The notes below the pieces were generated by a model. That model made no database searches. It saw nothing but the letters and a program-made list of their open reading frames with translations, and was not told where the DNA came from. From Betaproteobacteria bacterium (GTDB lineage Bacteria > Pseudomonadota > Gammaproteobacteria > Burkholderiales > Casimicrobiaceae), in contig JAAFIS010000001.1 in NCBI GenBank assembly GCA_013298695.1, positions 558,001-622,000 of the forward strand: a stretch of DNA of 64,000 nucleotides. The letters are read 5' to 3'. Below are positions 44,107 through 59,263 of this stretch, piece after piece. Numbering within the stretch: position 1 is the stretch's first letter; each line of letters begins with the position of its first letter. The position numbers were made by a program, and so were the translations under genes.

Positions 44107-44499
44107 ATGTCGTACCAATCTTTTTATAGACATAAACTCTGTGCACTATCCACTCTGGTTTTAGCCTTGCACTTACCTTCTATGGCGTACGCATCCGATG
44201 GAGCTGGTCTAGTTCTAGGCCAGTTACTTATTAACGTGATTTTGCTTGCGATTGCCATCGGTACGTTGGCGGCAATTTGTCGTTCTATCGTGAGCGACCG
44301 TTGGGCGCAACCAGCAGCACTCACGACGTTTCTTGGCGGAGTCGTGGCCTACATCTGTCTGTTCCTTGCTTCTGGCTTGACGCTGATAGGTGTCTTCACG
44401 CTTTGGTGGTTTTTTTTAGTCTTCCTCGTTGTTCTATGTATTGCCTATACCGGGCTTCGATATGTCGTGCACCTGTTTCGCAAAAGAAGTCCGAAGTGA
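44107..44499 (+). CDS. Hypothetical small membrane protein
   Basis: 130 residues from ATG 44107, 2 nt after the previous stop. An N-terminal signal or anchor, then hydrophobic segments at about residues 35-60, 67-92 and 93-118 (LTLIGVFTLWWFFLVFLVVL). Function unknown. It lies in an apparent operon between the dockerin-like gene and the phospholipase-like gene. Confidence 0.65.
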   Translation: MSYQSFYRHKLCALSTLVLALHLPSMAYASDGAGLVLGQLLINVILLAIAIGTLAAICRSIVSDRWAQPAALTTFLGGVVAYICLFLASGLTLIGVFTLWWFFLVFLVVLCIAYTGLRYVVHLFRKRSPK

Positions 44500-44501
44500 G
44501 C

Positions 44502-46820
44502 ATGTCCATTAGCACTCAGTCTCTACCTGTGAAGAATCGGCGCTTACTCCTTCTCTTTAAAAACAAGCTGCGCATTTGCATGATGCTCGGTTCGATGGTT
44601 GCGTCCGTTGTTCATGCCTACGAAATCGGCAATCATGCCGATATGACGCAACGCGCACTCGAAATATCGAAGCTAAAAACAGACGCGAGTAAGCTCGCTC
44701 GCCTTGGTTTACGGCAGCTCGATGTATCAAGCCCGTCGCAGCTCTTCCCACGAGCGACTGTAGGGGCAGAGATTCCGACGTGCTATTCAACGCCGCCCGT
44801 CGCGTCGGACAAATACCAGATTCTTCAACTATTTCGACATGGTGCATGCTATGAAGATGACATAGAGAATGGTTTTCGTGTCTTCTCTCATTTTTACGAC
44901 CCCAAGAACGGTGGCGTTGGACTATCTCCACCACCACCATTACCGCAGCAGCCACCGTCCTTTACCTGGGCGCTTAGCGGCACGGGTGCTACCGCGCAAA
45001 CTGGTGTAAATCACTTTTCTTATAAGGACGCGCGAGATTCCTTTTACAAAGCCTTTACTGATTTATCGAAAATAGAGCGCAATAAATACTGGGGAATTGC
45101 GTTTCAATCGCTGGGGCATGTCATGCATCACTTGCAAGACATGGCACAGCCTCAGCACGTTCGCCAAGATGACCATTGCGATTCCTTTCAGTGCGTAGTC
45201 GCTGGTCAGTACAAACCGAGCAGCTATGAAAAGCTCATGATCACGCCGACGTTTGTGCAGATCGTGCGAGCACTCGCTCAGACGGCAACAACGCCGATAC
45301 TCTTTGGTTTACCAAAAGAATTTTGGAATGCGACAGGCACAGAAAACGTCAACACCTATGCCACTGCATCACAAGGTATCGCTGCCTATGCCTCTACCAA
45401 CTTCGTTAGTGCGGGTACTGACTATCGCTTTTCGAGCGCGGGAGGCGCAGTTCAAGCGCCGGGACACAACTACCCTATTCCGACCTCAGCGCCCACTGAA
45501 GTTACAAACATTGGCTCGCTCACAGGTTACACAAATACTGACGCCCCGTTTCGTTTGAAAACCGTATGCCCTGATTTAGCTAAGTGCCGTGTCGAGTTTT
45601 GGGGATCAACGAATCAGCCGAGCACACGAAAATCATCGACTTCAATTTTCGGGCAAGATTTGAAAGTTGTCGGCAGTGCCGTCGTTGGTTATCCCAATCA
45701 GTTTTCGCAAAACGCATTCACGTATGCGGCTACCGCCTCTGATCTTGTGCCGCTTACTACAAGATACAGCGCAGGCCTTATCGGCTATTTCTTTCGCGGT
45801 GAAATGCAAATACGTACTCCCGCTGAAGGTGTGTACGGCATTATCGACGGCGGCGATCCAGCGTCGAATTGCAAAGACGCTTGTGGGTTCAAGAAAATCA
45901 AATTGCGCGTGACGAACACGACACAACCGATTAACGGCACTGCACAAAACTTTACTGGTGGCGCCATGACCGCTGTCGTGAAGTTCTCGCGAAACGCCTG
46001 TTTTACCTCCGATTTCGCGAGTGATCCTGGCTCACTCTACCCGCTCAATACGAGTTGCTTCGCATACGCGAATAGTGAGCCCGTCGAAGAACAAGTGATT
46101 GCTGACCCTTTGCCCTTGTCGTTTAGTCTCGCATCGGGATCGGAAACCGCTGGGACTTTCAACTTCACGAACCCGATTCCAATCAACGCATGGAATGTCA
46201 AGTTGCAACTTATCTATCGCGGCCAAATTGGGCAAGAGGAAGACGGTGTGGCGGTACATACGCAGAGGCTTTCCACGCCGACACCCCTGCGCTATACGAA
46301 TGAATACGACTACCTGCTGATTAATCAGCGGCTGTACACACGAGCCGATGTCAATGCGAGCCAAACGCTTCTGAATCAGGTGGTTCCCACTAGTTGCGTT
46401 ACAGGCGCAGCCGGTAGCCGAACGCTAGCGGCCGGTTGCTTTAATCCTCAAACCGTTTCGACGAGCTGGGTTGGCGCAAACGGTGCAACGCTCGCTAGTT
46501 TGAACGCTTTGCCAACCAATTCACATACGCTCTTCGTCTATCTCGCAGATTACTTCGGAACGGTGAATGCAACGCTGCCAGGGCCGAGTGGCACATCGAT
46601 TGCCGTGGCGTTGGACGTTCGCGACATCATCGCGAGAAACGTTGACAACCAACTTGTGAGCGACTTAATGATAGCGTGGAGAAATTTGCAGGCGTGGCGC
46701 GTGTACAGTCGATACTACCTCGCAAGCGCCGATCAAACAGCAGCGCCGCTGGCTGTGTCGAACCAGCGCCCCGCATTCCCAACAACTACGCCGGTGAAGT
46801 TGACGAGCGTGAACTTTTAA
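44502..46820 (+). CDS. Exported zinc-dependent phospholipase C-like protein
   Basis: 772 residues from ATG 44502; the open frame reaches back to 44277 inside the preceding gene. Signal peptide about residues 10-47 (FKNKLRICMMLGSMVASVVH). The N-terminal 250 residues show zinc-ligand spacing of the zinc phospholipase C/P1-nuclease type: YEIGNHADMTQRAL, FQSLGHVMHHLQDMAQPQHV, followed by RQDDHC. The remaining 500 residues are beta-rich and unassigned. A lipid or nucleic-acid phosphodiester substrate is probable from the metal motif. It lies 3 nt after the small membrane protein gene, so the three form one operon. Confidence 0.65.
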   Translation: MSISTQSLPVKNRRLLLLFKNKLRICMMLGSMVASVVHAYEIGNHADMTQRALEISKLKTDASKLARLGLRQLDVSSPSQLFPRATVGAEIPTCYSTPPVASDKYQILQLFRHGACYEDDIENGFRVFSHFYDPKNGGVGLSPPPPLPQQPPSFTWALSGTGATAQTGVNHFSYKDARDSFYKAFTDLSKIERNKYWGIAFQSLGHVMHHLQDMAQPQHVRQDDHCDSFQCVVAGQYKPSSYEKLMITPTFVQIVRALAQTATTPILFGLPKEFWNATGTENVNTYATASQGIAAYASTNFVSAGTDYRFSSAGGAVQAPGHNYPIPTSAPTEVTNIGSLTGYTNTDAPFRLKTVCPDLAKCRVEFWGSTNQPSTRKSSTSIFGQDLKVVGSAVVGYPNQFSQNAFTYAATASDLVPLTTRYSAGLIGYFFRGEMQIRTPAEGVYGIIDGGDPASNCKDACGFKKIKLRVTNTTQPINGTAQNFTGGAMTAVVKFSRNACFTSDFASDPGSLYPLNTSCFAYANSEPVEEQVIADPLPLSFSLASGSETAGTFNFTNPIPINAWNVKLQLIYRGQIGQEEDGVAVHTQRLSTPTPLRYTNEYDYLLINQRLYTRADVNASQTLLNQVVPTSCVTGAAGSRTLAAGCFNPQTVSTSWVGANGATLASLNALPTNSHTLFVYLADYFGTVNATLPGPSGTSIAVALDVRDIIARNVDNQLVSDLMIAWRNLQAWRVYSRYYLASADQTAAPLAVSNQRPAFPTTTPVKLTSVNF

Positions 46821-47194
46821 ATCTTCTCAAGTCAATGTGACTCAGCCAAACGTGGCATTGGCATTTATGCCGCTCGCGGCAGCTCACATACCCAAACCCG
46901 CGTGGTGTCGACACGTGACTGTCCGCTTCTGACCGGGTGCCACGTCTTAGGACAGCCGACTTGACTAGCTGTAATCGCTGCTGCCGCGACTTCAGGCTGA
47001 AAGCACCTACTGGCGGCTATCGCTGCGAAGCTGAACCTCAAGGCTCATAGATCGCTTCAGGCTGATTGCGGCCGCCCTTCAAGGACTGTTCTGTGCGTCC
47101 CATATGGGGGAGTCAGGCAAGAGGAGTGTCGCGACCCTCCCAAGCCGGAAGGAATGTGCCGCGTCGAGTTGGCAAAAGTTGCTGTATGCAGTTC
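46821..47194. repeat. Gap with two dispersed-repeat copies
   Basis: About 370 bases without a gene. Copies of the dispersed repeat lie at 46989-47004 (ACTTCAGGCTGAAAGC) and 47033-47070 (CTCATAGATCGCTTCAGGCT). They sit at the left border of the defence-like island. Confidence 0.55.
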
Positions 47195-47884
47195 TCAGTC
47201 AGGCGGCTCACGCAGCCCCTCGACGTCTTGAGGTAGCGTTTTCCGCATCTCGCTGGCCAGGAGCAAGGCGGCGTTCGCAAAATTCTCCATCCGGTAGATT
47301 CGGTCGAGCATGACTGTTCGCTCGGCGGCTTCCTGGCCTTTCATCAAACCCTCCACTGCGAACCTCACAATCCGCAGCTCAACGTCGACGTCCAAGTTGC
47401 CTTTGAAAGCCTCTTCCAGCCACGGCCTAACCAGATCGACCGACCGCTCGGCGGCAACGCTGAGTACGTGACGGATCAGTTCCCTGGCGACGCGATCGAT
47501 GCCGACTGCGAACTCGAAGAGTTTCTTCTCATCCTCCGTCGCCACGTCAAGTTCTTCGCTGGTCGGGGAGCGCGAGAAGAACCTGAGTTCATCTTCGTCT
47601 GTCACGCCCAGGGAGTTGAGCGCGCGCAGCAACGGATTCAGCTCCCTCAGCGGTCGCATGTAAGGGGGCAACGTGTACCTGTGCGCCCAGAGTTTCAGGA
47701 TGACATCAACGCACACTGAAGCGGCCGCATCGCGCGTGACTTCGGATGCTTGTTCGGCAGCAGATATCTTCTCGGCGACCAGGTGCGCCATCCACTGGGC
47801 AGTGACATCGTCACTGAGCTTCAACCCGGCAACGACCCGCTTGCCGATTTCGATGACTGCCTTAGAGCGATCGAGTGATTCCAT
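47195..47884 (-). CDS. Hypothetical helical protein, partner of the STAND NTPase
   Basis: 229 residues, soluble and almost fully helical (DRSKAVIEIGKRVVAGLKLS, EFAVGIDRVARELIRHVLSV, RMENFANAALLLASEMRKTL). No signal peptide or membrane segment, and no domain recognised. Its start overlaps the 3' end of the giant NTPase gene by 23 nt, so it belongs to the same transcript and is probably a subunit or modulator. The codon and base use match those of the NTPase gene. In type III AVAST systems a second, smaller gene accompanies the Avs3 NTPase; whether this one corresponds is open. Confidence 0.75.
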   Translation of the reverse strand: MESLDRSKAVIEIGKRVVAGLKLSDDVTAQWMAHLVAEKISAAEQASEVTRDAAASVCVDVILKLWAHRYTLPPYMRPLRELNPLLRALNSLGVTDEDELRFFSRSPTSEELDVATEDEKKLFEFAVGIDRVARELIRHVLSVAAERSVDLVRPWLEEAFKGNLDVDVELRIVRFAVEGLMKGQEAAERTVMLDRIYRMENFANAALLLASEMRKTLPQDVEGLREPPD

Positions 47885-50800
47885 CTTGTCCGATCAGGTA
47901 GTACCGGTTGTACGGATAGTTATAAAAGCTGTAGTCGTCCCTGCCGGTTTCGTCTTTAGGCGGCTTGCGGCGGACATCGACGCGGACAATGAGGGAGGAG
48001 TCCGGGCGCCCTTCCAACAGTGCATGGATGAACTTGCCGTCGGCGCTGAGGCGAGTGCCGGTCAGGACGCCGCGCTCCTCGCCATAGCCCGCGCTGCGCG
48101 ACCATGTCTCGCTACGCATCCTGCCTCCGGCTGTTAGCGTCCACGACCTCGCATCGGGATCAGTCACCGGAGTCAGAAGGTCGAGGATTTCCTGGCAAGG
48201 GCGAGGACCCGGGCTGCTGATCGTGCCGGCCCAAGGGTCATATTCGTCAAGGCTCAAAGAATCACTTCCCGTCGTGACCCAACCGAACAACCTCAACTCT
48301 GGGTCATCAACCTTCTCTCCATGGTCCATGTGGTCCGCGTCTGGAACGTAGATTTCTCCTGGGTTAGGGCTGGTCTGCAGGGCAGCCAAAAGCGTCGCCG
48401 CGTGCCGCGAAGGAACGAGCGCGGACCCAACTGACACCGTTTCGCCGTTGGGCGAATCTGTGGTCGTCCAATGGCCCCACAGAGCAGTCATACCGTCGTC
48501 TGTTGTCAGTTGGTCATCCAGGTACTGCCTATCGACCTGCCAACACCAAGAGGCATCAACTCGATCGATGCTCACTGAGGCACCTTTCAAAATCTCGGGA
48601 TCGCGCCGTTCCGCAAGCCAGCGATCATCACCGCGGGTGAGCAACCGTCCGCTCAACCAGTCATCAAAAGGGTCCTCGTCCTCGTCTGCGCGACGGCGTA
48701 CCGGCTTGGTCTCCAAGAGCTGCCCGGCGACGAGCATCATCGCGTGATAGGACTGATACACGACGACGTCCTCCACCTCCGGCATGCTGCTGTGCCTGTA
48801 TGTTGTCTCTCTTCCTCGAAAGAGCCCGCGCTTGTAGCGCTGATCATCTTGACGACGGTGTCCAAGCGACAGTCGACCGCGCAAGACTGCCAGCGCTCGC
48901 TGTTCGATGGATTGCTCGTTCAGTCCAAATACACGGCCCAACGGTGCGAACCAATATGGGCCGATGTCGATGCCAAAGAAGTACCTGTCGTCGTCCACGG
49001 CAACGCTATCCAAGGCCTCGTCATCAACGATTTCATCCTCGCCGCGGTCGTAGATCTCCGTAGGCAGCGCAGGACGGTTCGCCCCGTTCGCGATGTCGAG
49101 CAAGTCCGTTGACAATGCACTGACTTCGTTCAGGCTCCTTAGTGCGCCTGAGGCGAAATGCCGAACGACGACGTGCTGCTCCCTTGCGGCGGCGTCAAGG
49201 AATGCGAGGAAATCAGCGGCTGCACGAGGAGCGTCCATCGCGCCTCGCGCCAAAGCAATGCAGAGCCATTGGCGAGCATGCCACTCATAGAACACCAGAC
49301 CGCGGTCAACAAATGGCTGCGGGTCAGCGCTCATTGCGCGGGTAGCCAGCGCGGACAACAGGGGCTGCCAATCGAGCGCAAGGCAGTTGCGGACGCAGTG
49401 GGCGTGTTCCCAGCGTTCCGGGTTAGACGGGCGCGCTAGACCTGCCCACAAGTAGCCAGCCAAAGCCTCCTCGCAAGACGAAGGCGCTGTGAGCGAGTCA
49501 TTCCACGGGCCATCGCCGTCTTCTCCCTCGAGAACTTCTTCGAGCAAGTCGAAGCCGAAGTTCAACACCTCATCGGCCTCGTCGTTGGTCAAGCGCCGCG
49601 CGAGCGGATCCACCAAGTGGAATAGGTCTTCGGCATCGAGCGTGTCGAGCTGCGACAGGTACCCTTTGATGCGGGCCATGGCGACGTCATTCTCCGAAAC
49701 GATGCCTTCGGCATAGAGGTCATCAAAGGGACCCTCACGCCCCCAGTCACGGCGTCCCACACGATTCGGCTCGCCCGCAGCCAGCGACAACGCAATCCTC
49801 TTGAGTTCATTGCGGACAGATTGGAGCCTCTTGCTCGGCCCAGGGAGATGCTTGATGACGTCCATGAAGCTAAACACACTGAACTCGTCATCCAACTGGA
49901 TTGCACGAAGGTATCCGTCGATCTCCGATAGCGTCGCGCGCCTACATCCTTGCTCATAGAACTCGCGGACGTACGAGCGATGGGCCACCTTCTTGAGCGA
50001 TCGTCGTGCCGCGAGGACCGCGGCCGCGTCGCGGAGATCGACTCCGCTGAAAACGGCATCCCAGTCAGGCTTCTGGATCTCTCCGTGCGGGGACGTCCAG
50101 AGCGCAGGAGCTGTCGTCACCGGTGGCATGGCTGCCTTAGCTTCAGCTGCCAGAAGCAGCCTGTCCAAATCTGGGAGCGACATCGTCAGCGAGTCGGCAA
50201 GCACCTTGAGTTCGCGCCAGGTAGACGCTTCATAGGTTTGGATGCGGAGGAATCGATAGGCGGTCCTCAGCATCAATCGCTTTCGATTGATGTCCGCCTC
50301 TGCGTCGATAGCCGCTTTGACGTCGTTGAGGCGTCTCCAGCCGCTCACGGTGCCGCTCAGGGCGACCGCGGCCATTCTTGGAAGAAGTCGGTGGTCGATC
50401 AGGCGGTAGATCGCGATCGGGAACAACTCACCAGCAAATCCAAACTCTCGATCCCGCCAGCGGCTCAAAACTGCAAGACTGGATGAAGGGCAGAGACCGA
50501 CCAGCCCCTGGACCAATCGGTGCCAGTCCATGTATTTGTCCCGGGCCATGTGCTCGTAGCTGAGCTCCGCGATGCGCGCCAACCGGTACGCGGTCCGAGG
50601 CCTCGACTTTCCCAGGCGGTGCGCGGCGTCCGTCAGATCCAGGAACGTTGTCCATCGAGAGAGATGCTCCTCTCCGATCTTGCTGGCAATGTCGATCGCC
50701 TTGTCGAAATAGGCAGCCGCCTCCAACTTGCTCACACAGAAGATGGCGCGCGCCAGCTCCTGGAGGTCGTCGACCCGTGTCTCCGCATCGCCGCGCGACG

Positions 50801-53405
50801 CTGCGAGCTGATCGAACGCTCTGGAGCTGAGTTGCAGTGAGAGGTCGCCCAGCCTTTCTGTTCGTGCAGTCACGCGGCACATCCTCGTGAGCGTGCTCGA
50901 GTAGATGCGGTCGTTCTTGTCGATCCATTTCAACAGGGCGTCGATCTGATATGGCTGTATGGAGCCTGCATCGCGCAGGATCTGCACCCACTCGATGGCA
51001 GCCACCTTCTCCAGATTGAAATTCCGCTGGTAGTCCAGTGACGAAGCAGATTGCGTCTGTCCCAGCGCGAGCTCGATCTCGTGATCGAGGTTGAGAAGCT
51101 GACGGCCACAGGCGATCTCCGCGGCCATGATGAACCAGGCGAGGACGCCCCCTGTCACATGCTCCAGCTGAGACGCTTGCTGACCCTTGACAGGAGAACT
51201 CTTCGTCGCGAACTCAGGTCGGACATCCTTGGGCGCCAGATCAATTAGCTCGATCCGTTGGCCGCGAAGCGCAGCTTCCAAAGCGTAAGCTCGGACGAAT
51301 ATCGCGCGCTCTGCGTCGAAATCATGGGACTGGCGAGGCGGATCTGCCAGCAGGTACCGGCGTAGCGTCGCTGCCCAAGCCTCGTCATCGCGCGGAAGGC
51401 ATCGAAGCGCTTGGGTGATCGCGGACCGAACCCCGTCCAGCACGCTGCTTCCTGATTTCCATGAGAGATCCTCTTCAGGCAACTTGACCTTGGGGTTGAC
51501 CAAGATGCCCATCAGATGGCGCAGCGGCTCTGCCGGCAGCAGATGCGCGATACAGGATGCTTCCGTCGCCAGGCCCAACAGCATCCAAACATCCCCCTCG
51601 GCGTGCTCGGCAAGCTCATCAAGCTGCTTGACGTCACCAACGTCTGCCAATCGCGCAGCCACCAGCTTCGTGGTTCTCAATACAGTGAATTTAGGACTCC
51701 ATCCTTTCAGGAAGCGCGTCGCCTCAGCGGGGCCGCGCAATCTCAGGACACCGAGGGCAAGCTCGGCGACGTCGGCGTCTTCGATCTTGTTTTCGTTGCG
51801 ACGCTTGGGTGGCAGCCTGCTCCAGGCGATCAACGATTCCCAGGCCATCCTCCACCTGCTGGCGGCCTCGGGGATGAGGTCGCCGTTGCCGGCAAGCAGC
51901 ACCGCCTCGTACGCATGATGCGAGCCATGGAATCCGCCGCCGAACGTGCGCCTAGAGACCAGTTCTTCGATGCGATCTGACGCGAGCAGCACGCCGGCAA
52001 TGTCGGTGTTCTCCTGGATGAGCTTGTTCTGGCGAGCCTCCCCAGCGACCTCGCCGCCGACCTTCAGCGCGAGCTTGGCGGCAGCAACATGCCGTCCCTG
52101 TTGTAGACACGCCCTGAGGGCGAACCTCAGCCGTTGCAGCTCAACGTCGCGGCGCTCGAGGGGGTTGTCGGGAAGGCTCTCATTCGAGAGGGCCAGCGCG
52201 ATCAACTCGTCCATCCGCCCGGCTGAAAGCAGCAGCTGCGGCAACGCCGCCGCGACGTAGGAGCTGGTCGCGGCGAGGGGCTTGAGCTTTGAAAGAAACG
52301 CGTCAAGCGAGGCCGCATCGGGCTTGAACGTCTCGTTGAACCACGTCTCGGCCGGCTCATCCATGAAGTGCAGGCCCGATTCCTTGACGAACAGCGGCCG
52401 CCCGAACTCTGTGGCGAACGTTCGGACGGCGCTCTCGGAAACTCCAGCGATCTGAGCCAAGATAGAAATCGGCACCAGGGGCCGGAGCACTGCGAGGCCC
52501 TTGCAGATGAGGTCTATCTGATTCGCCTCGGTCGGACCCCACTCGGCTCTCAGTCTGTTAATGGCCTTGGTCAGCAGCCCTGCAATCGCTTGCTGGACTG
52601 TCGTGGGTGTTGGCCCCAAGGCCCTGAGCATTTCTCCGATCGGCGGGGTGCCCTCCATGGCCAGCGCTTGAATTCGAGGGTTGTCGCTGCTGAGAAACGC
52701 GAACTCCGCTGCCTCAGCCTCCGTCGCGTCGGGATAGCTCAACCGAAGATGCGTGGCGGTCTCAGCCTTCGAGAACGACTCCAGCTTGATCACGATGGCG
52801 TCGAGTGGCGCTCCCAGGTGGTCCTGTCGGTGTGATCGGCATGTGAATGCAAACCGCACTCCGTCAGGGATATCCGTGTTGATCAGGTCATGGACAAAGG
52901 CACGCTCCCCGATCTCCTGCGCTGCCATGTATGCGTTGTCTGCCGCGTCGATGATGATGCAAAGGCTCGCTTGAGGCGTGCGGGCTCGGAGAACATCAAT
53001 GGCTTGCTTGAGCCGAGACACGAAGGCCCGCATGAATTGCTTGGGATCTGTGCCGTGGGACGGAATCAGCGGCAGGCAAAGCTTCTGTCCCGCGAGCTCG
53101 TTCGCGATCTGAACGAGCGCATCGCGGTATCGGTGGCGGTAATTCAGGGCTTGGCGGTAGGTGCCGTCACCGAAGCAGTCGTACAGGACCGCCACCGAAC
53201 CAGCAGGCATGGCACGCGCCAGGTGAGCAGATAGCGATGACTTGCCCACACCACCGTCTGCATGGATGACCACCGGGCGCTGCGCGACGAGCAGTGCGGC
53301 CAGGATGTCTGGCTGCTGCGCTCGGGGAAGCATGTGCTTCGGTTCCGAGATCATCGAGGGCGCTGGCAGGAGATCGCGTTCGCTCGCCCGCAGGGCTTGA
53401 AGCAC
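47862..53405 (-). CDS. Giant STAND NTPase (downstream part of a split Avs3-like protein)
   Basis: 1847 residues from ATG 53405, but the same frame is open up to a TAG at 53667-53669 and continues beyond it as the nuclease segment. Residues 46-58 hold Walker A (HADGGVGKSSLSA); Walker B is LCIIIDAADN (148-157). A winged-helix-like part follows (about 300-380), then more than a thousand residues of helical repeats, which in STAND proteins form the sensor, and a beta-rich C-terminus (NYPYNRYYLIGQDG). The architecture fits AVAST-type antiphage receptors. Whether it is made as a separate protein without the nuclease is uncertain. GC is higher than in neighbouring genes, a sign of transfer. Confidence 0.8.
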   Translation of the reverse strand: MLQALRASERDLLPAPSMISEPKHMLPRAQQPDILAALLVAQRPVVIHADGGVGKSSLSAHLARAMPAGSVAVLYDCFGDGTYRQALNYRHRYRDALVQIANELAGQKLCLPLIPSHGTDPKQFMRAFVSRLKQAIDVLRARTPQASLCIIIDAADNAYMAAQEIGERAFVHDLINTDIPDGVRFAFTCRSHRQDHLGAPLDAIVIKLESFSKAETATHLRLSYPDATEAEAAEFAFLSSDNPRIQALAMEGTPPIGEMLRALGPTPTTVQQAIAGLLTKAINRLRAEWGPTEANQIDLICKGLAVLRPLVPISILAQIAGVSESAVRTFATEFGRPLFVKESGLHFMDEPAETWFNETFKPDAASLDAFLSKLKPLAATSSYVAAALPQLLLSAGRMDELIALALSNESLPDNPLERRDVELQRLRFALRACLQQGRHVAAAKLALKVGGEVAGEARQNKLIQENTDIAGVLLASDRIEELVSRRTFGGGFHGSHHAYEAVLLAGNGDLIPEAASRWRMAWESLIAWSRLPPKRRNENKIEDADVAELALGVLRLRGPAEATRFLKGWSPKFTVLRTTKLVAARLADVGDVKQLDELAEHAEGDVWMLLGLATEASCIAHLLPAEPLRHLMGILVNPKVKLPEEDLSWKSGSSVLDGVRSAITQALRCLPRDDEAWAATLRRYLLADPPRQSHDFDAERAIFVRAYALEAALRGQRIELIDLAPKDVRPEFATKSSPVKGQQASQLEHVTGGVLAWFIMAAEIACGRQLLNLDHEIELALGQTQSASSLDYQRNFNLEKVAAIEWVQILRDAGSIQPYQIDALLKWIDKNDRIYSSTLTRMCRVTARTERLGDLSLQLSSRAFDQLAASRGDAETRVDDLQELARAIFCVSKLEAAAYFDKAIDIASKIGEEHLSRWTTFLDLTDAAHRLGKSRPRTAYRLARIAELSYEHMARDKYMDWHRLVQGLVGLCPSSSLAVLSRWRDREFGFAGELFPIAIYRLIDHRLLPRMAAVALSGTVSGWRRLNDVKAAIDAEADINRKRLMLRTAYRFLRIQTYEASTWRELKVLADSLTMSLPDLDRLLLAAEAKAAMPPVTTAPALWTSPHGEIQKPDWDAVFSGVDLRDAAAVLAARRSLKKVAHRSYVREFYEQGCRRATLSEIDGYLRAIQLDDEFSVFSFMDVIKHLPGPSKRLQSVRNELKRIALSLAAGEPNRVGRRDWGREGPFDDLYAEGIVSENDVAMARIKGYLSQLDTLDAEDLFHLVDPLARRLTNDEADEVLNFGFDLLEEVLEGEDGDGPWNDSLTAPSSCEEALAGYLWAGLARPSNPERWEHAHCVRNCLALDWQPLLSALATRAMSADPQPFVDRGLVFYEWHARQWLCIALARGAMDAPRAAADFLAFLDAAAREQHVVVRHFASGALRSLNEVSALSTDLLDIANGANRPALPTEIYDRGEDEIVDDEALDSVAVDDDRYFFGIDIGPYWFAPLGRVFGLNEQSIEQRALAVLRGRLSLGHRRQDDQRYKRGLFRGRETTYRHSSMPEVEDVVVYQSYHAMMLVAGQLLETKPVRRRADEDEDPFDDWLSGRLLTRGDDRWLAERRDPEILKGASVSIDRVDASWCWQVDRQYLDDQLTTDDGMTALWGHWTTTDSPNGETVSVGSALVPSRHAATLLAALQTSPNPGEIYVPDADHMDHGEKVDDPELRLFGWVTTGSDSLSLDEYDPWAGTISSPGPRPCQEILDLLTPVTDPDARSWTLTAGGRMRSETWSRSAGYGEERGVLTGTRLSADGKFIHALLEGRPDSSLIVRVDVRRKPPKDETGRDDYSFYNYPYNRYYLIGQDGITRSL

Positions 53406-53666
53406 GTCGTAGAGCCGGACGGAACGGTCCTTTGCGCCCTCGTCCGTCGCCCGGCGGGTGACCAGTTCCTTCAGTTGGAGCGCGGCCTCGGTATCAGTTT
53501 CGGAAAGGTACGCGCTCAGGTCTTGGCTCAGGAGGTTGCGCTGTTCCCATAAATCTGGCTCACCAGCTTCAACCGAAAAGGCAGCAAAGAAGCTCTGTAA
53601 GGTGCTGCCGGCTGATGCCCCGTAGCGCTTGAGTAACTCGTCAATCTCACGGTGCCGCGGTGCTGT

Positions 53667-53669
53667 CTA
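53667..53669 (-). other. In-frame TAG between nuclease and NTPase
   Basis: The codon (TAG on the minus strand, context GGA TAG ACA) lies in the same frame as the segments on both sides; the distance to ATG 53405 is 264 nt, exactly 88 codons. The 87 codons from here to 53405 have a plausible protein sequence. One change, for example from CAG, would restore the full gene. Confidence 0.85.
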
Positions 53670-54113
53670 TCCCGCAGCGAGATCGGCCAAAGCTTCAAGG
53701 ACATCCTCAGCCATAGGCCTGTTCGTCAGAAAAACGAACCGAACCTTCTCCTCCAGGGCGTTCAATCCGAGCGACGCCTCCAATTCCTTGAAACGCCCAG
53801 CGAAGCCTTCGATGGTTCCTTTGAGACCGCTGGCCGTCCAGGGATCGTGCGCGTGCTTGGACGAATGCTTGAGTTGCATGTAGCGGATGGCCTCTGCCGC
53901 TACGACGTCCTCGCTCCCATAGTACAGGCCGACGTCGATGACCTCGTCGCCGACGCTCGTGGACGCATCTCCCTCGTCCAGTGACGCTCCTTCGATCGTC
54001 ACCGCCACTAGGCCGTCCGCCCCGGTAAGCAGTCCGAGGCATTGCCGGGCAGCCCACTGATAGTGGAACTGGTCGCCGCTCCTGGAGGGACCAACAGAAC
54101 CTTGTTTAGCCAT
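53667..54113 (-). CDS. Cap4/DUF4297-like nuclease segment, N-terminal part of the split STAND protein
   Basis: 148 residues from ATG 54113 (MAKQGSVG); ATG 54152 is another possible start. It has the layout of the Cap4/DUF4297 dsDNA nuclease domain: GDQFHYQWAARQCLGLL, acidic E41, D60 in EVIDVGLYY and Q80-x-K82 in YMQLKHSSKH, a PD-(D/E)xK-type active site. The end, VFLTNRPMAEDVLEALADL, is the middle of that domain, and the frame runs on after the TAG as HREIDELLKRYGASAGSTL. It is therefore the front of one gene of about 2083 codons broken by a single nonsense codon. Confidence 0.75.
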   Translation of the reverse strand: MAKQGSVGPSRSGDQFHYQWAARQCLGLLTGADGLVAVTIEGASLDEGDASTSVGDEVIDVGLYYGSEDVVAAEAIRYMQLKHSSKHAHDPWTASGLKGTIEGFAGRFKELEASLGLNALEEKVRFVFLTNRPMAEDVLEALADLAAG

Positions 54114-54399
54114 ATCCTTGGCGCATCCTGCATCCGTCTTTTGACGGAGCATACAAGCCCGAGCTGTCGTCGCGGGAGCGGCTGGTAACCAGCTCCCTGC
54201 GTCGAACGGCGTGGGGCGCTTTCACGCGTCGAGTTTGACAATGCGAAGGGCAGCAATCGCTGCAAAGCCGACATCGAAACAGATTAATGACTGACCGCTT
54301 TGGGTCGACTGCACGCACTCACGACCGATAACTGCCGACCAAGAGCCGACTCTCAAAACCTCCTGCCGCCACCGCTGTATCGTCTGCGGCAACTTTCGT
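54114..54399. other. Gap between the two STAND genes
   Basis: About 290 bases. It must hold the promoter of the split STAND gene (minus strand) and the downstream region of the second. A phrase near 54290-54310 (GACCGCTTTGGGTCGACTGC) looks like degraded intergenic sequence; no gene is seen. Confidence 0.4.
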
Positions 54400-57300
54400 C
54401 TAGGGGCGCTCCGCGTCGAAAAGCCAGGCTTCAACATTTTGAAGCCCGAGGCTCAGGAACCCATCCTGAAGAGTAATGCAGCGACCAAGCATCGCACCGC
54501 CGTCGCTTAGTTCTCGTTCCTCGGCTTCGCGAAACAAACGAGTCAGTACCTGCGGCAATTCGTCCATGTACACGTGCGGCGTTTTCTTCAGTTTTAAGAA
54601 TGCAACGACACGCTCCGACGATTGAAGAGCTTCATCCGGATAGTTAACGACAAGTTCGCCCAGCCAATCGTCTATCCCGTGCAACGAGAAATTGTCTCGG
54701 CCGGCCTCGCTCTTCTCAAGTGTGGCGAAATACGCTTCGACGATGTCATCCGGCATAGGAGTTAGATCGCGGCATTTTTTGAACAGCGAACGCATTTCTG
54801 CGAGGAGTTCCTGGCTTTCACCAAACTCAGATGAGAACGCTGCGCGAATCCCGAACCAACAAACCGCAGTGCATTTCTTGGTGTAGGCGTTGCTTGTCCA
54901 GACTTGCGTGGCACCTAGCCATTTGTTGAGAGACTGTGCGACACGCAATTGATCAACAAAATTCTCGGCTCGAATGTGTCCCTCAAGCACTGCCAATGAC
55001 GAAATTCTCCCCCACATCTTTGCCGCTTCGCCGGTGAATGTTTGCCCGATGTGTGACAAATAGGTATCGACTCTTTGGAAGTTCTTGTTGTACGACCAGT
55101 AAAGGCACTTTTCTGCTTCGCACCATAGCTCCTCCTCGGCATCGGCCGTGGCGACTCGAAACAAATTCCATCCCTCTTCGGGATAGTGCCACTGCAAATT
55201 CGATAATTCGTGCAGTACTAGCGATTTCACTGCAGGATTCGGATCTAATGCGAACCGTTTTATTGCGGGCATCAGCAGCTCTGGCCACGGCGCCTTTTCG
55301 TCTATCGTGCGATGCATCAGAGTAAGTGCCGCCTGAACCGCTTCGCCTCGGGTCATGTTGATACCCGTCGCCATCAACCCATTCAGCGCGGTCTCATCTT
55401 GGTCATACGCTTCAACGAGACTTGCGAACCCTATTGCGAGGAACAATACACGGTACCGATCGGACTCGTTGATTACTACGTGAGCGCATGCGCTTATCGC
55501 CTTCGCCGCCTCTCGCCGTTCGCGCCAGAACGTCGGATGGCGATCGAGTTCATCAAGTAGCTGCAACGCTAATGCGTTCAAATTCGGTCTGTGAAGCGGC
55601 TCCCAGCCTTGCTGCGGTTGTAGCCTACCTCCAAGGTATGCGATGTGGTTTGCAGCTCCTTCCAAAATTTCCTTTCGATACCGATCCGGAATCAGTGTCC
55701 AGTGCGACACCAGCAAATTCATGAATCGTTCCGGATCGCGCGACGAGGCTTCATTAAGCACTCGTTCGACTTGCTCCGCACCGCCTACCAAACGATTCTC
55801 TTCGTGTGTCGACCACTCGTTGTCGGACTCGTAATGGGCCAGTAGCCGAAGTACGCCGAAATCGGAAACACGCAGGAATACCTCATGTGAAAACGGAGGA
55901 TGCACCATGCCACCCCGCGATCGTATTGCCGGTTCACCGATGGTCGGACCAAATTTGTTTTCCCAACATTTCAACATTTCCGATAGTCTCTCGGAGCGCA
56001 TATAGGCGGGAATGGCTCGGGCAAGCGCTGCGCAGCGTCTCGCGGAATACATTCTCTCTGGCAGCGGGCACGCCAGCCAGCGCCGGACAATGCCTTGTTC
56101 GAGGAAGTCATGAGTTGCGTTTCCTACTAGGACAATTGCGCGACTACAAAGCTCCGCGAATTCAAACGACAACGATGAATACGGCATCGTGCTGTCTCGC
56201 AAAACGCGCTCGGCATGGTCAATGTTTAACTCGACATGCTTCGTGATCGCACGCAATGCGATATAGCGCAACGCACCTTCGCGGCTCGAAGTTAGTCGCT
56301 CAGCATTTCGCGTCCACCACTCGCTCTTCGTAAGCGCATGAGTCTCAACTGCGTTTCCGACCACACGAAAAAGCTCGTTCATCGCGCCCACGTGGTACAT
56401 GTCGTGCTTGCTATGTGATAGGCGATAACTGGTGTCATCCAAAAACACATCGCACCATCCCGACTCGCTGTCTGTCCATCGGCACTTCTCGCTCCAACGC
56501 TCAATGTCGCCGATCGCCAGCGATAAGAGCGAATCGGAAGCGCACATTCTTTCTTCGAAAAACTTTTTGTCGTTTCCAAAGTCGTGAGGTTCACAATTGA
56601 GCTTTCCTCGAAACGAGCACTTCGAGAGATCTTCAGGCTTTATGCGTGACGTTATGTAACGCCAAAGTGTGTCGTCCCCCACTGCCCTCAAGCGCACGCC
56701 GTAGGCAAGCACATGCCCGAGAAAATCTCGGTCGCCGACAGGTTTAGCCAATAGTAGTTCGACGATCCGCGTTACGATGACCGGATCTTTCACTTGCATC
56801 TTCGGTAATTCGATTGACACCATCCAGGCAAGTTGGGAGTCATTCGACCACTCCATCTCTAATGCGTCGCACCAGAACCGAACCACCGAATCGGCATCTT
56901 GCTCTTTCCACTGTGCAATCCATCGCGCATGCGACGCCAAGGCACTAACGTCTTGTTTTTGGACGACATAGGATTGGTAGTTCTTACACATGAACGAATA
57001 CCATGCAAAGGAACTCAACTTTAAATAGAGTGAGTGGAATAGCTCGCGATGTCGATCAAACAGCCATTTGACTAGTGACCAATCCTCGTGGTCGGGCACG
57101 AGCTCAGCTAAGCACTCGACAACAAGTCGTTTGATGTGATAGGCCGCGCTGCCAACCACAATTGCGCGAATGTTTTTCCTGAGCTCGATTCGACTTGTCG
57201 CCGATACCACGAAAACGTAGCTCCTTATTACGGGCCGAACAAAGGGTAGAGGTGCCAGTTGATCGACTAACGTCTTTAGACTTTGTTGCTTTCGCATGGC

Positions 57301-58974
57301 ATCGCTGACGATCAACGTATCAAGTAGCGTTTGATGCCGAAAGCGCAAACGATCGCGCTCGTCTGGCTCGAGTACACCAGCACTTTGCAGCTTTCGCAAG
57401 AGCTGCTCATCAGCACATATCTCGTTTCTAGCGACGACGAGCTCGCGCTTTCTGAGCATGGCTACCGCGATTAGCTCAAGCGCGCGGACGCCAGCGTCAC
57501 CAATCGCGGTATCTCTCTGCAGTACCACGTCGAGGTAACGGTGTACAAGCATTTGCCTTGTACTAAAGCTCGCCACACTGACTTTTTTTGCGATCTCGAC
57601 GAAGAGAGCGAGATCGAGTGGAGTACAAATCAAATGGCGCGTCTCTGCATCGATGGTCTCGCAATCAATGGCTAAGTTTGAGAGCAGGGGTACTACACAC
57701 GTCAACCAATCCAACTCGTCACATCGCACGGTCTTGCTCCACGACAGGTTTGCGAGTCGCTGATCGTATTTGAGATCAAACTCGCGACACGCCGCAACGA
57801 CCGTGACTCGCGGAATCAGAGCAAGCTGGTCAATCAGCGATAGGAAATGAGAAAGTGCCGCTCCTTCTCTGGAAATTGAGAGCACGTCAAGCGAGTCAAT
57901 TACGACGACAACTCGCTGGAGGTCTGCAAGGCGAGCTACGAGCGAGCAAAATTCGCGCGGCAGTCCGTGCGCCTCGCGCTCTTCGTAGCTGGGTAGCGAC
58001 GCGTACTCGCGAGCTTGAACAAAAACAATTGTCGTATCGGTTTGCTGTTCAATATGTTCAACAAAATCGAGCAGCGCACACGTCTTTCCACCACCGGGGA
58101 TACCGGTTAGAAGTATCTTTTGTGATTCGTTTGCCACGGCTTCAATGAGGGCAGTTGTCGCTGGAAGTACGATTCGATGCCCCCCAGCGTCGCGCCGCCA
58201 CGCACGTCCAACCATTGACACCACTCGAAGCCGTTGACGCAGCGCTTTTTCGTCAACAGGAGCAGAAAGCACGCCACCGGTTGTTCGTACGATCTCGCGA
58301 AGATTTGCTTTTGAAAGTCGATCGACTCCCAACGAACTCCGCTCGTTGCTTGGTTTGCGTTTAGCAACTCGATCCAATTCGCGATACAGCGCGTTAAAGA
58401 TTTCTTCGTGGTTCGATACGATTAGGCCGAGGCGCTGTCGAAGCTTCGCTTCGAGTTGATCGGTTTCTCCCGTGACCTCAAACACCGCTGAACGCAAAAA
58501 GAAGTGCACATCCTTGTCAGTCATCACGTCACTCAGCGCTAGGAGCTTGTCGTGTGTTCCCCTTTGATTCACGGTTAGCGCTTGGAAGTAGGAGGTAAAG
58601 CTGACATGTACCTGCGCGTGCTCGTGCAACACCTTAAGTTCGCCAAAAGGAGATCGTGAGCAAAAGCGAATTCCCGCTGAAGTATTGGTCGCAAAAAGCG
58701 TGAGCGCTTTGTTGAGATCATCCGAGAGCTCTGCAACTGTCCAATTCGTGTGTCCAGGACTGTTTTTCTTCGTCTGACAACAAACCAGCACCTGTTCGCC
58801 TGACCCAACGACCACATCATCTACTTCTATCGCACTACCGCTCTTTCCAGGTAATACTGAGTCGACTTCAATCCAGTCATACTTTACGTCGAGCAACACG
58901 TTTATCGCCCAGTCCATCGCGACAAGTATCTGGTAGTCATCCCCTCTGTTCGAATGTATTCCGGCTTTGCTCAT
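54400..58974 (-). CDS. STAND NTPase with N-terminal Cap4-like nuclease domain (Avs-like)
   Basis: 1524 residues from ATG 58974; ATG 59049 upstream is possible but less likely. The N-terminus has the nuclease layout: GDDYQILVAMDWAINVLL, E36, D52-D53 in EVDDVVV and Q67-x-K69 in CCQTKK. Walker A GIPGGGKT lies at 291-298, Walker B VVVVIDSLD at 355-363, and AACREFD at about 394-400 is a STAND sensor Arg. The rest is a long helical-repeat sensor. Such proteins recognise a phage protein and then cleave DNA. This gene is intact and its base composition differs from the split STAND gene beside it, so the two were probably acquired separately. Confidence 0.85.
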   Translation of the reverse strand: MSKAGIHSNRGDDYQILVAMDWAINVLLDVKYDWIEVDSVLPGKSGSAIEVDDVVVGSGEQVLVCCQTKKNSPGHTNWTVAELSDDLNKALTLFATNTSAGIRFCSRSPFGELKVLHEHAQVHVSFTSYFQALTVNQRGTHDKLLALSDVMTDKDVHFFLRSAVFEVTGETDQLEAKLRQRLGLIVSNHEEIFNALYRELDRVAKRKPSNERSSLGVDRLSKANLREIVRTTGGVLSAPVDEKALRQRLRVVSMVGRAWRRDAGGHRIVLPATTALIEAVANESQKILLTGIPGGGKTCALLDFVEHIEQQTDTTIVFVQAREYASLPSYEEREAHGLPREFCSLVARLADLQRVVVVIDSLDVLSISREGAALSHFLSLIDQLALIPRVTVVAACREFDLKYDQRLANLSWSKTVRCDELDWLTCVVPLLSNLAIDCETIDAETRHLICTPLDLALFVEIAKKVSVASFSTRQMLVHRYLDVVLQRDTAIGDAGVRALELIAVAMLRKRELVVARNEICADEQLLRKLQSAGVLEPDERDRLRFRHQTLLDTLIVSDAMRKQQSLKTLVDQLAPLPFVRPVIRSYVFVVSATSRIELRKNIRAIVVGSAAYHIKRLVVECLAELVPDHEDWSLVKWLFDRHRELFHSLYLKLSSFAWYSFMCKNYQSYVVQKQDVSALASHARWIAQWKEQDADSVVRFWCDALEMEWSNDSQLAWMVSIELPKMQVKDPVIVTRIVELLLAKPVGDRDFLGHVLAYGVRLRAVGDDTLWRYITSRIKPEDLSKCSFRGKLNCEPHDFGNDKKFFEERMCASDSLLSLAIGDIERWSEKCRWTDSESGWCDVFLDDTSYRLSHSKHDMYHVGAMNELFRVVGNAVETHALTKSEWWTRNAERLTSSREGALRYIALRAITKHVELNIDHAERVLRDSTMPYSSLSFEFAELCSRAIVLVGNATHDFLEQGIVRRWLACPLPERMYSARRCAALARAIPAYMRSERLSEMLKCWENKFGPTIGEPAIRSRGGMVHPPFSHEVFLRVSDFGVLRLLAHYESDNEWSTHEENRLVGGAEQVERVLNEASSRDPERFMNLLVSHWTLIPDRYRKEILEGAANHIAYLGGRLQPQQGWEPLHRPNLNALALQLLDELDRHPTFWRERREAAKAISACAHVVINESDRYRVLFLAIGFASLVEAYDQDETALNGLMATGINMTRGEAVQAALTLMHRTIDEKAPWPELLMPAIKRFALDPNPAVKSLVLHELSNLQWHYPEEGWNLFRVATADAEEELWCEAEKCLYWSYNKNFQRVDTYLSHIGQTFTGEAAKMWGRISSLAVLEGHIRAENFVDQLRVAQSLNKWLGATQVWTSNAYTKKCTAVCWFGIRAAFSSEFGESQELLAEMRSLFKKCRDLTPMPDDIVEAYFATLEKSEAGRDNFSLHGIDDWLGELVVNYPDEALQSSERVVAFLKLKKTPHVYMDELPQVLTRLFREAEERELSDGGAMLGRCITLQDGFLSLGLQNVEAWLFDAERP

Positions 58975-59263
58975 GCGCGAAAATATACAGTTTGGCAGCC
59001 GCGCGAGAGAACAGTTCATCAGACATAGTTCGAATATCGCTTTCCACAACGCGATTGATCGTGACTACGGGAGAGCGGATCGCTCGTGATACCTCAAATG
59101 TCGATTTCTGCAGTTGAGGAAGACAACAGGGCTTGTTGCCTTTCGCGATGAATACGACGGCATCTCGCGAGCGCGATACGCGATAGTCTGCTTGTGCCCG
59201 AACTGAGACAGTCACACACTTTATTTCGTCACAAACATTGATTCGCGTTTTTTTTGAACTCAA
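58937..59263 (-). CDS. Possible small protein before the Avs-like gene
   Basis: 108 residues from a TTG at 59263, overlapping the start of the Avs-like gene by 38 nt. Composition is protein-like (DYRVSRSRDAVVFIAKGNKP), but no family is recognised, the start is weak and no good ribosome-binding site is present. It starts 19 nt after the inverted-repeat element. It may be chance. Confidence 0.3.
   Translation of the reverse strand: MSSKKTRINVCDEIKCVTVSVRAQADYRVSRSRDAVVFIAKGNKPCCLPQLQKSTFEVSRAIRSPVVTINRVVESDIRTMSDELFSRAAAKLYIFAHEQSRNTFEQRG

What the first reader, a model, noticed from the sequence alone, without database searches (positions are those of the whole stretch)
47862..54113. One nonsense codon splits a giant nuclease-STAND protein
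The nuclease segment ending at 53667 and the 1847-residue NTPase frame are in the same reading frame, separated by one TAG and 87 further sense codons. Read through, they give one protein of about 2083 residues with a Cap4-like nuclease followed by a STAND NTPase, the layout of Avs3. The rest of the gene is not decayed. The stop may be a recent inactivating mutation, an assembly error, or a real expression switch that separates sensor from nuclease.
Basis: partly seen in the sequence, partly recalled or inferred. Interest (0 to 1): 0.75.

Follow-up and report, generated by a model that had tools for sequence, protein, structure and literature searches.

The report
Phage-defence gene broken by stop codon
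A bacterium carries what looks like an acquired copy of a known anti-phage gene (Avs3) that seems complete except for one early stop codon; this is probably a recent loss of function, or possibly a sequencing error, rather than a new genetic switch.

Summary
On the minus strand one frame is cut once, by a TAG at 53669-53667: 148 codons from the ATG at 54113 before it, 1934 sense codons after it. Searched apart, the pieces cover one family, Avs3a (NF041816 positions 1-142 and 144-2083), and the overlapping gene is Avs3b. So this is an AVAST type 3 (Avs3) cassette, probably acquired horizontally.

A switch or split is not supported. 16 of 16 relatives spanning the site have a sense codon. The next two in-frame starts lack an SD-like match and are start-type codons in 6 and 7 of 16 relatives. 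0 of 36 tRNAs found read UAG; RF1 is present. The gene is otherwise undecayed: 597 of 604 invariant residues kept. Three other hosts have single frame lesions elsewhere in avs3a.

Most likely this is a recent inactivating nonsense mutation. A base error is the main rival (no reads), and weak read-through is not excluded. Against me: dN/dS to the closest relative is raised after the stop, and that relative lacks avs3b, so it is an imperfect yardstick. Interest is low.

The parts
53670..54113 (-). Avs3a N-terminal piece, 148 codons from the conserved ATG; first part of the Cap4-like nuclease region
   Evidence: NCBIfam NF041816 1-142, E 4.6e-69; PADLOC Avs3a 1-149; 8DGC SeAvs3 7-148; the Met-Ala start is invariant in the 16 relatives of A1
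53868..53936 (-). Putative nuclease active-site residues D60 (53934-53936) and Q80-L81-K82 (53868-53876), kept; the PD-(D/E)XK-type reading is recalled, not tested
   Evidence: Invariant columns D60, Q80, L81, K82 in A1; the window keeps 57 of 57 residues of this piece that are invariant in 15 relatives
53667..53669 (-). In-frame TAG at codon 149
   Evidence: reported as '1 TAG' inside the Avs3a match; sense codon in 16 of 16 relatives
47862..53666 (-). Rest of Avs3a, 1934 sense codons plus stop codon: rest of the nuclease region, STAND NTPase, C-terminal sensor part (domain roles recalled for Avs3)
   Evidence: NF041816 144-2083, E 0; PADLOC 152-2090; 8DGC 161-2078; 540 of 547 residues invariant in 15 relatives kept
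53238..53255 (-). Walker A motif GGVGKS of the STAND NTPase, intact
   Evidence: Translation; invariant columns G287-S292 in A1
47195..47884 (-). Avs3b, 229 aa, overlaps the 3' end of avs3a, open frame
   Evidence: NCBIfam NF041817, E 4.6e-74, 248.9 bits against a cut-off of 200; PADLOC Avs3b
54114..54268 (-). Leader conserved with the cassette in closer relatives; a block at 54124-54128, read by eye as SD-like, differs at two adjacent bases in the window only
   Evidence: blastn similarity ends at about 54263-54270 in the closer relatives; alignment A2 of 11 sequences

Best explanation
This is an AVAST type 3 (Avs3) anti-phage cassette, avs3a plus avs3b, probably acquired horizontally, whose avs3a was recently interrupted by one nonsense mutation at codon 149. 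Working copies (known biology, partly recalled) make one large protein: the STAND and C-terminal part binds a phage protein, the large terminase, assembles, and switches on the N-terminal nuclease, which cuts phage and host DNA. Here ribosomes should stop after 148 codons, within the nuclease region. That leaves an incomplete nuclease fragment and no good start for the sensor, so the system is inactive or nearly so. Shown: the frame, the family, the single in-frame stop, intact relatives, no conserved stop. Inferred: loss of function, that it is recent, and that the cost of an abortive nuclease favoured it.
For: The pieces match Avs3a consecutively; Avs3b is open beside it. Sense codon at the site in 16 of 16 spanning relatives; the 15 held in one piece have a single open frame of 2085-2241 codons. 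597 of 604 residues invariant in 15 relatives are kept (57 of 57 and 540 of 547); left out one at a time, those relatives depart at 2 to 47 in the longer piece, L002 and L005 at 7 like the window. Polarised by three outgroups, the window branch shows 32 nonsynonymous and 24 synonymous changes, the sister branch 55 and 41 (Fisher p = 1); neutrality would give 3.6-4.9 to 1. In a model of an intact relative (L005) the stop column is a loop followed by two confidently modelled helices, 155-164 and 166-178. No SD-like match at the next two in-frame starts, which are not conserved as start codons. avs3a with a single frame lesion at other places occurs in L011, L052 and L054, against 20 unbroken copies looked at.
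Against: No reads, so a base error cannot be excluded. Constraint looks nearly normal, so inactivation is inferred from the stop alone. After the stop, dN/dS to the closest relative (0.20 and 0.34) is about twice that to three others (0.08-0.15); this may mean relaxation in either lineage, including before the stop arose, or only the short distance. The sister (L018 and L007) is an imperfect control: it is split over two contigs and no avs3b was found in L007. The altered column is variable in relatives, so a read-through product could work; Belinky et al. (PMC7918605) argue that many bacterial in-frame stops are not pseudogenes.
Confidence: 0.7

Rival explanations
1. Sequencing or assembly error: the isolate has a sense codon and a working Avs3.
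For: The rest of the gene looks like a working copy; the window branch is no more relaxed than the sister; the genome is a 22-contig draft.
Against: A base substitution in the interior of a 1.01-Mb contig (length) is a less common error than an indel (general knowledge). The window also departs at a conserved block just before the start codon, though that change need not lower expression.
Confidence: 0.17
2. Weak, unprogrammed read-through by near-cognate tRNAs still makes some full-length protein, so that the nonsense codon lowers the dose of a dangerous nuclease but does not remove it.
For: The gene keeps its invariant residues; the site is a variable loop that would tolerate a substitution; in-frame stops in genes with dN/dS below 1 are reported as widespread in bacteria (PMC7918605, abstract and part 1 of Results read).
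Against: No UAG-reading tRNA among the 36 tRNA genes found; RF1 present with an open frame; TAG ends 15 of the 38 largest mechanical ORFs of the window; no conservation of the stop. The same paper finds that such stops tend to persist only briefly.
Confidence: 0.1
3. A programmed switch or genuine two-gene split: nuclease fragment and STAND sensor made apart, or joined only when UAG is read through during infection, for example by a phage-supplied suppressor tRNA.
For: Both halves keep their invariant residues and have dN/dS well below 1; phages with a predicted suppressor tRNA exist (PMC9022506, search listing with the start of the abstract only).
Against: 0 of 16 relatives have the stop; the next in-frame starts lack an SD-like match and are not conserved as starts; the cut lies inside a confidently modelled block of a relative; breaks in other hosts fall elsewhere.
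Confidence: 0.02

Closest known systems
Avs3 / AVAST type 3 (SeAvs3, PDB 8DGC; NCBIfam NF041816 avs3a and NF041817 avs3b)
   Same: Length of 2083 codon positions, consecutive alignment over the family model, Walker A and invariant N-terminal residues kept, overlapping avs3b
   Different: avs3a is interrupted by one TAG at codon 149; the block before the start codon differs; each piece alone scores below the 2800-bit family cut-off
Disrupted avs3a copies in other hosts (L011 Bordetella petrii, L052 Halomonas sp. PA16-9 plasmid, L054 E. coli CFIAFB20190157)
   Same: One frame lesion seen in an otherwise alignable avs3a
   Different: Those are frame changes at other positions; this is a nonsense codon. 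Any of them may be an assembly error (reads not seen); L011's copy is also cut by a contig end
In-frame stop codons in bacterial genes described as possibly read through (Belinky et al. 2021, PMC7918605; abstract and part 1 of Results read)
   Same: Single in-frame stop in a gene with dN/dS below 1
   Different: Their large-scale study is of stops shared by two or more species; here 0 of 16 relatives share the stop

Membership tests
Avs3 (AVAST type 3) | avs3a family model covered from end to end | tested here: met
   Two pieces searched apart cover NF041816 1-142 and 144-2083 and PADLOC Avs3a 1-149 and 152-2090
Avs3 (AVAST type 3) | Score over the curated cut-off for the whole protein | tested here: inconclusive
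   233 and 2681.4 bits for the pieces against a cut-off of 2800; neither piece alone reaches it because the gene is cut
Avs3 (AVAST type 3) | One continuous avs3a reading frame | tested here: not met
   TAG at 53669-53667; it is an interrupted member, not a working one by sequence
Avs3 (AVAST type 3) | N-terminal Cap4-like nuclease with conserved acidic and QxK residues (motif name recalled) | tested here: inconclusive
   D60 and Q80-L81-K82 kept. The model of an intact relative finds 8DGC first (E 5.4e-21, rmsd 16 A) and LmuA, Hachiman, DUF4297 and Cap4 chains only weakly, E 1.6e-3 and above. In the window the domain is cut by the stop
Avs3 (AVAST type 3) | STAND NTPase with Walker A | tested here: met
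   GGVGKS intact; AAA_16, NPHP3_N and NACHT match, all below their Pfam cut-offs
Avs3 (AVAST type 3) | Partner gene avs3b | tested here: met
   47195-47884, NF041817, 248.9 bits over the cut-off of 200
Avs3 (AVAST type 3) | Recognition of phage large terminase and abortive DNA cleavage | not testable with these tools
   Needs experiments; biology of Avs1-Avs4 seen in passages of PMC12931631
Programmed stop read-through or split gene | Stop conserved at the same place in relatives | tested here: not met
   0 of 16 relatives
Programmed stop read-through or split gene | UAG-reading tRNA in the host | tested here: inconclusive
   0 of 36 tRNA genes found in the genome; some expected tRNAs are not among the 36, so the set may be incomplete
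Programmed stop read-through or split gene | Conserved start codon with ribosome-binding site for the downstream piece | tested here: not met
   In-frame starts at 53405 and 53354 have no SD-like match and the one at 53333 only 3 bases; these codons are ATG, GTG or TTG in 6, 7 and 9 of 16 relatives

The most novel reading that the evidence does not exclude
The amber codon is a conditional safety catch: the suicidal nuclease-sensor is made whole only when UAG is read through, for instance when an infecting phage that brings a UAG suppressor tRNA supplies it, so the phage's own code change arms the defence.
Probability: 0.01. Interest if true: 0.9.

Novelty: new member of a known kind. Interest (0 to 1): 0.14.

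Why it matters
As it stands, it is one more case of a mobile abortive-infection gene that seems to have been lost by a single early lesion while the rest stays intact, and it shows how such a locus is read as two odd proteins. If read-through were real, it would be a dose or trigger control on an Avs protein, but nothing here requires that.

Tried and rejected
Natural two-gene split: rejected, since the 15 relatives held in one piece have a single open frame and the next in-frame starts are not conserved as starts. Genome-wide recoding of TAG: rejected, since prfA is present with an open frame and 15 of 38 mechanical ORFs of at least 200 codons (mutual overlap under 30%) end in TAG. Long-decayed pseudogene: rejected, since invariant residues are kept at the rate of intact copies and N:S on the window branch is below neutrality and equal to the sister's; the raised dN/dS to that sister after the stop and its missing avs3b are told as caveats. 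A second copy in the genome: one match only, to an 801-base DNA query and to the family model. Viral relatives: in viral contigs no pattern match for the long avs3a piece; for the neighbouring STAND gene one stretch matched a pattern and none was confirmed; both searches use short conserved peptides and find close relatives only. Literature: Avs3 with stop codon (2 of 2 listed, off topic), Avs3 with nuclease and terminase (1 of 1 listed, not opened), Avs3 with Avs4 and STAND (6 of 6 listed, off topic) and AVAST with pseudogene (15 of 37 listed) showed by title and abstract start nothing on a nonsense-split Avs3; some searches were background searches, of which parts were listed. The two founding Avs papers are not held, so their content is recalled. 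Not examined for frame: 15 of the 18 plasmid records with relatives and H37, seen only in a listing. L007 and L018 are two contigs of one MAG, their joint frame is undetermined, and they are left out of the count of copies. Three leader tallies were printed, with 11, 10 and 9 rows (L009, then L008 too, dropped).
Full report
On the minus strand the frame runs from the ATG at 54113 (or an upstream ATG at 54152 that the aligned relatives lack) to a TAG at 53669-53667. It continues for 87 sense codons without any ATG, GTG or TTG and on to 47862. That is 148 codons, one stop and 1934 codons. An 801-base query over the site matches the host genome once; that genome is a 4.08-Mb assembly of 22 contigs in which the window is C1:558001-622000.

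The identity is clear. Searched apart, the two pieces match NCBIfam Avs3a (NF041816) at positions 1-142 and 144-2083, PADLOC Avs3a at 1-149 and 152-2090, and a single PDB sequence, SeAvs3 of 8DGC, at 7-148 and 161-2078. The overlapping downstream gene 47195-47884 is Avs3b, over its curated cut-off. So this is an AVAST type 3 cassette with one interrupted gene. Pfam alone shows only NTPase matches below their cut-offs.

It was probably acquired horizontally. Relatives came from 18 loci in 17 genomes, labelled as Burkholderiales, Zoogloea, Pseudomonas and others, several of them MAGs. In the closer ones DNA similarity covers about 47150-54270 and nothing else of the window within the stretches held, at most about 9 kb on each side. 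In the host's own neighbourhood, of 99 other genomes (16 same genus, 43 same family, 40 same order) only one, of the same order, has any match: a distant one in two parts (6-785 and 1005-2062, best E 5.5e-98). In a class sample of 377 genomes, own genome included, 1 other has one. The cassette is 61% G+C, the window 55%.

Relatives have no stop at the site. In the alignment of about the first 330 residues from the 16 loci that span it, 16 of 16 have a sense codon, in a column that varies and lies next to a gap. The 15 relatives held in one piece have a single open frame of 2085-2241 codons. The relative with the most similar DNA (94-96%, L018 and L007) is split over two contigs. In it the first 686 codons are open across the site, but its joint frame is unknown. 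In L007 similarity ends at 47800, and no avs3b was found there, whereas 16 of 18 loci show one (L018 ends before it).

The stop does not sit at an evident seam. In a model of the first 329 residues of an intact relative (L005; mean pLDDT 63.5, pTM 0.54, but block means of 74-96 over residues 61-180), column 149 is a loop between helices 136-147 and 155-164. Helix 166-178 follows, and a strand at 179-183 lies at the edge of the confident part; beyond it the model is poor. Foldseek finds 8DGC first (E 5.4e-21, rmsd 16 A over 329 columns) and then, weakly, LmuA and other Cap4-like nucleases. That the 148-codon fragment lacks the end of the nuclease domain is therefore an inference. Starts for a separate sensor are poor: GTG 53405 and ATG 53354 have no SD-like match and ATG 53333 only a 3-base one; these codons are ATG, GTG or TTG in 6, 7 and 9 of 16 relatives.

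The host is not visibly set up to read UAG. Of 36 tRNA genes found in its genome, ARAGORN gives 0 with a CUA anticodon; some expected tRNAs are not in that list, so it may be incomplete. prfA is present with an open frame. Of 38 mechanical ORFs of at least 200 codons in the window, 15 end in TAG, among them the neighbouring 1549-codon gene.

The rest of the gene is not decayed. Of residues invariant in 15 relatives, the window keeps 57 of 57 before and 540 of 547 after the stop; left out one at a time, the relatives depart at 2 to 47 in the longer piece, L002 and L005 at 7. Polarised by three outgroups, the window branch has 32 nonsynonymous and 24 synonymous changes, the sister branch 55 and 41; neutrality would give 3.6-4.9 to 1. 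Not all of this is clean. Pairwise dN/dS to the closest relative is 0.14 before the stop and 0.20 and 0.34 after it, where three other relatives give 0.08-0.15 after it. That may be the usual effect of short distance, or some relaxation in either lineage. The sister may itself be impaired. The lesion is therefore young, or the sequence is wrong, or some function remains.

The leader gives a weak hint. Of 11 aligned leaders, a block at 54124-54128 that I read by eye as SD-like has its first four bases in common in 10 of 10 relatives and its fifth in 9 of 10 (L002 differs); the window differs at two adjacent bases. The window also has an AAGGA-like stretch nearer the start, so its initiation strength is undecided. 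It has 7 private changes there, L018 and L003 5 each, and L009, the most divergent row, 11.

Single frame lesions in avs3a recur elsewhere, at other places: L011 of Bordetella petrii, L052 of a Halomonas plasmid and L054 of an E. coli chromosome, where the match is one base longer than the query and two proteins are annotated. Against these three and the window stand 20 unbroken copies that I looked at: 15 loci by frame, L050 by frame, and L051, L053, L055 and L056 by annotation. So 4 of 24 are broken, not counting L007/L018, H37 and the 15 plasmid records not examined. Some may be assembly errors. The scatter of sites argues against a programmed break at codon 149.

Interpretation. Avs1-Avs4 cause altruistic cell death by cutting phage and host genomes once a phage protein is sensed (passages of PMC12931631; Avs3-specific facts are recalled because the founding papers are not held). 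The PADLOC authors note that many putative defence genes are annotated as pseudogenes and may be remnants or errors (passages of PMC9252829). The most likely reading is a recent inactivating nonsense mutation (0.70), then a base error (0.17), then weak unprogrammed read-through (0.10), then a switch (0.02). Belinky et al. (PMC7918605; abstract and part 1 of the Results read) is the main reason for not dismissing residual read-through; it also reports that in-frame stops tend to persist only briefly.

Noticed in passing
54400-59049 (-): A second large NTPase gene (1549 codons from the first TTG, probably starting later) with a weak N-terminal match to the Cap4-like nuclease LmuA and an AAA match just over its cut-off; no match in the 18 Avs3 loci as held (several are cut short), so it may be an independent STAND-type defence gene beside the cassette.
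   Followed up: partly
54124-54128 (-): A block before the avs3a start, read by eye as SD-like, is nearly invariant in 10 aligned relatives (one differs at one base) and differs at two adjacent bases in the window.
   Followed up: partly
54114-54268 (-): About 150 bases of leader stay similar with the cassette in the closer relatives from different genera; no sigma-70-like site was found by the scan.
   Followed up: partly
L054:1501-7780, L052:1039-7313, L011:3-5635: avs3a copies in other hosts broken by single frame changes at different places.
   Followed up: partly
L007:4195-12531: The relative with the most similar DNA, a contig binned as Kuenenia, has the end of avs3a but no avs3b match after it; the binning may be wrong.
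   Followed up: no
L048 and L049 (genome G075): A distant Avs3a-like protein in an uninterrupted frame of 2199 codons, matching the model in two separate parts.
   Followed up: no
44277-46820 (+): 847-codon ORF with no Pfam match at E 0.001.
   Followed up: no
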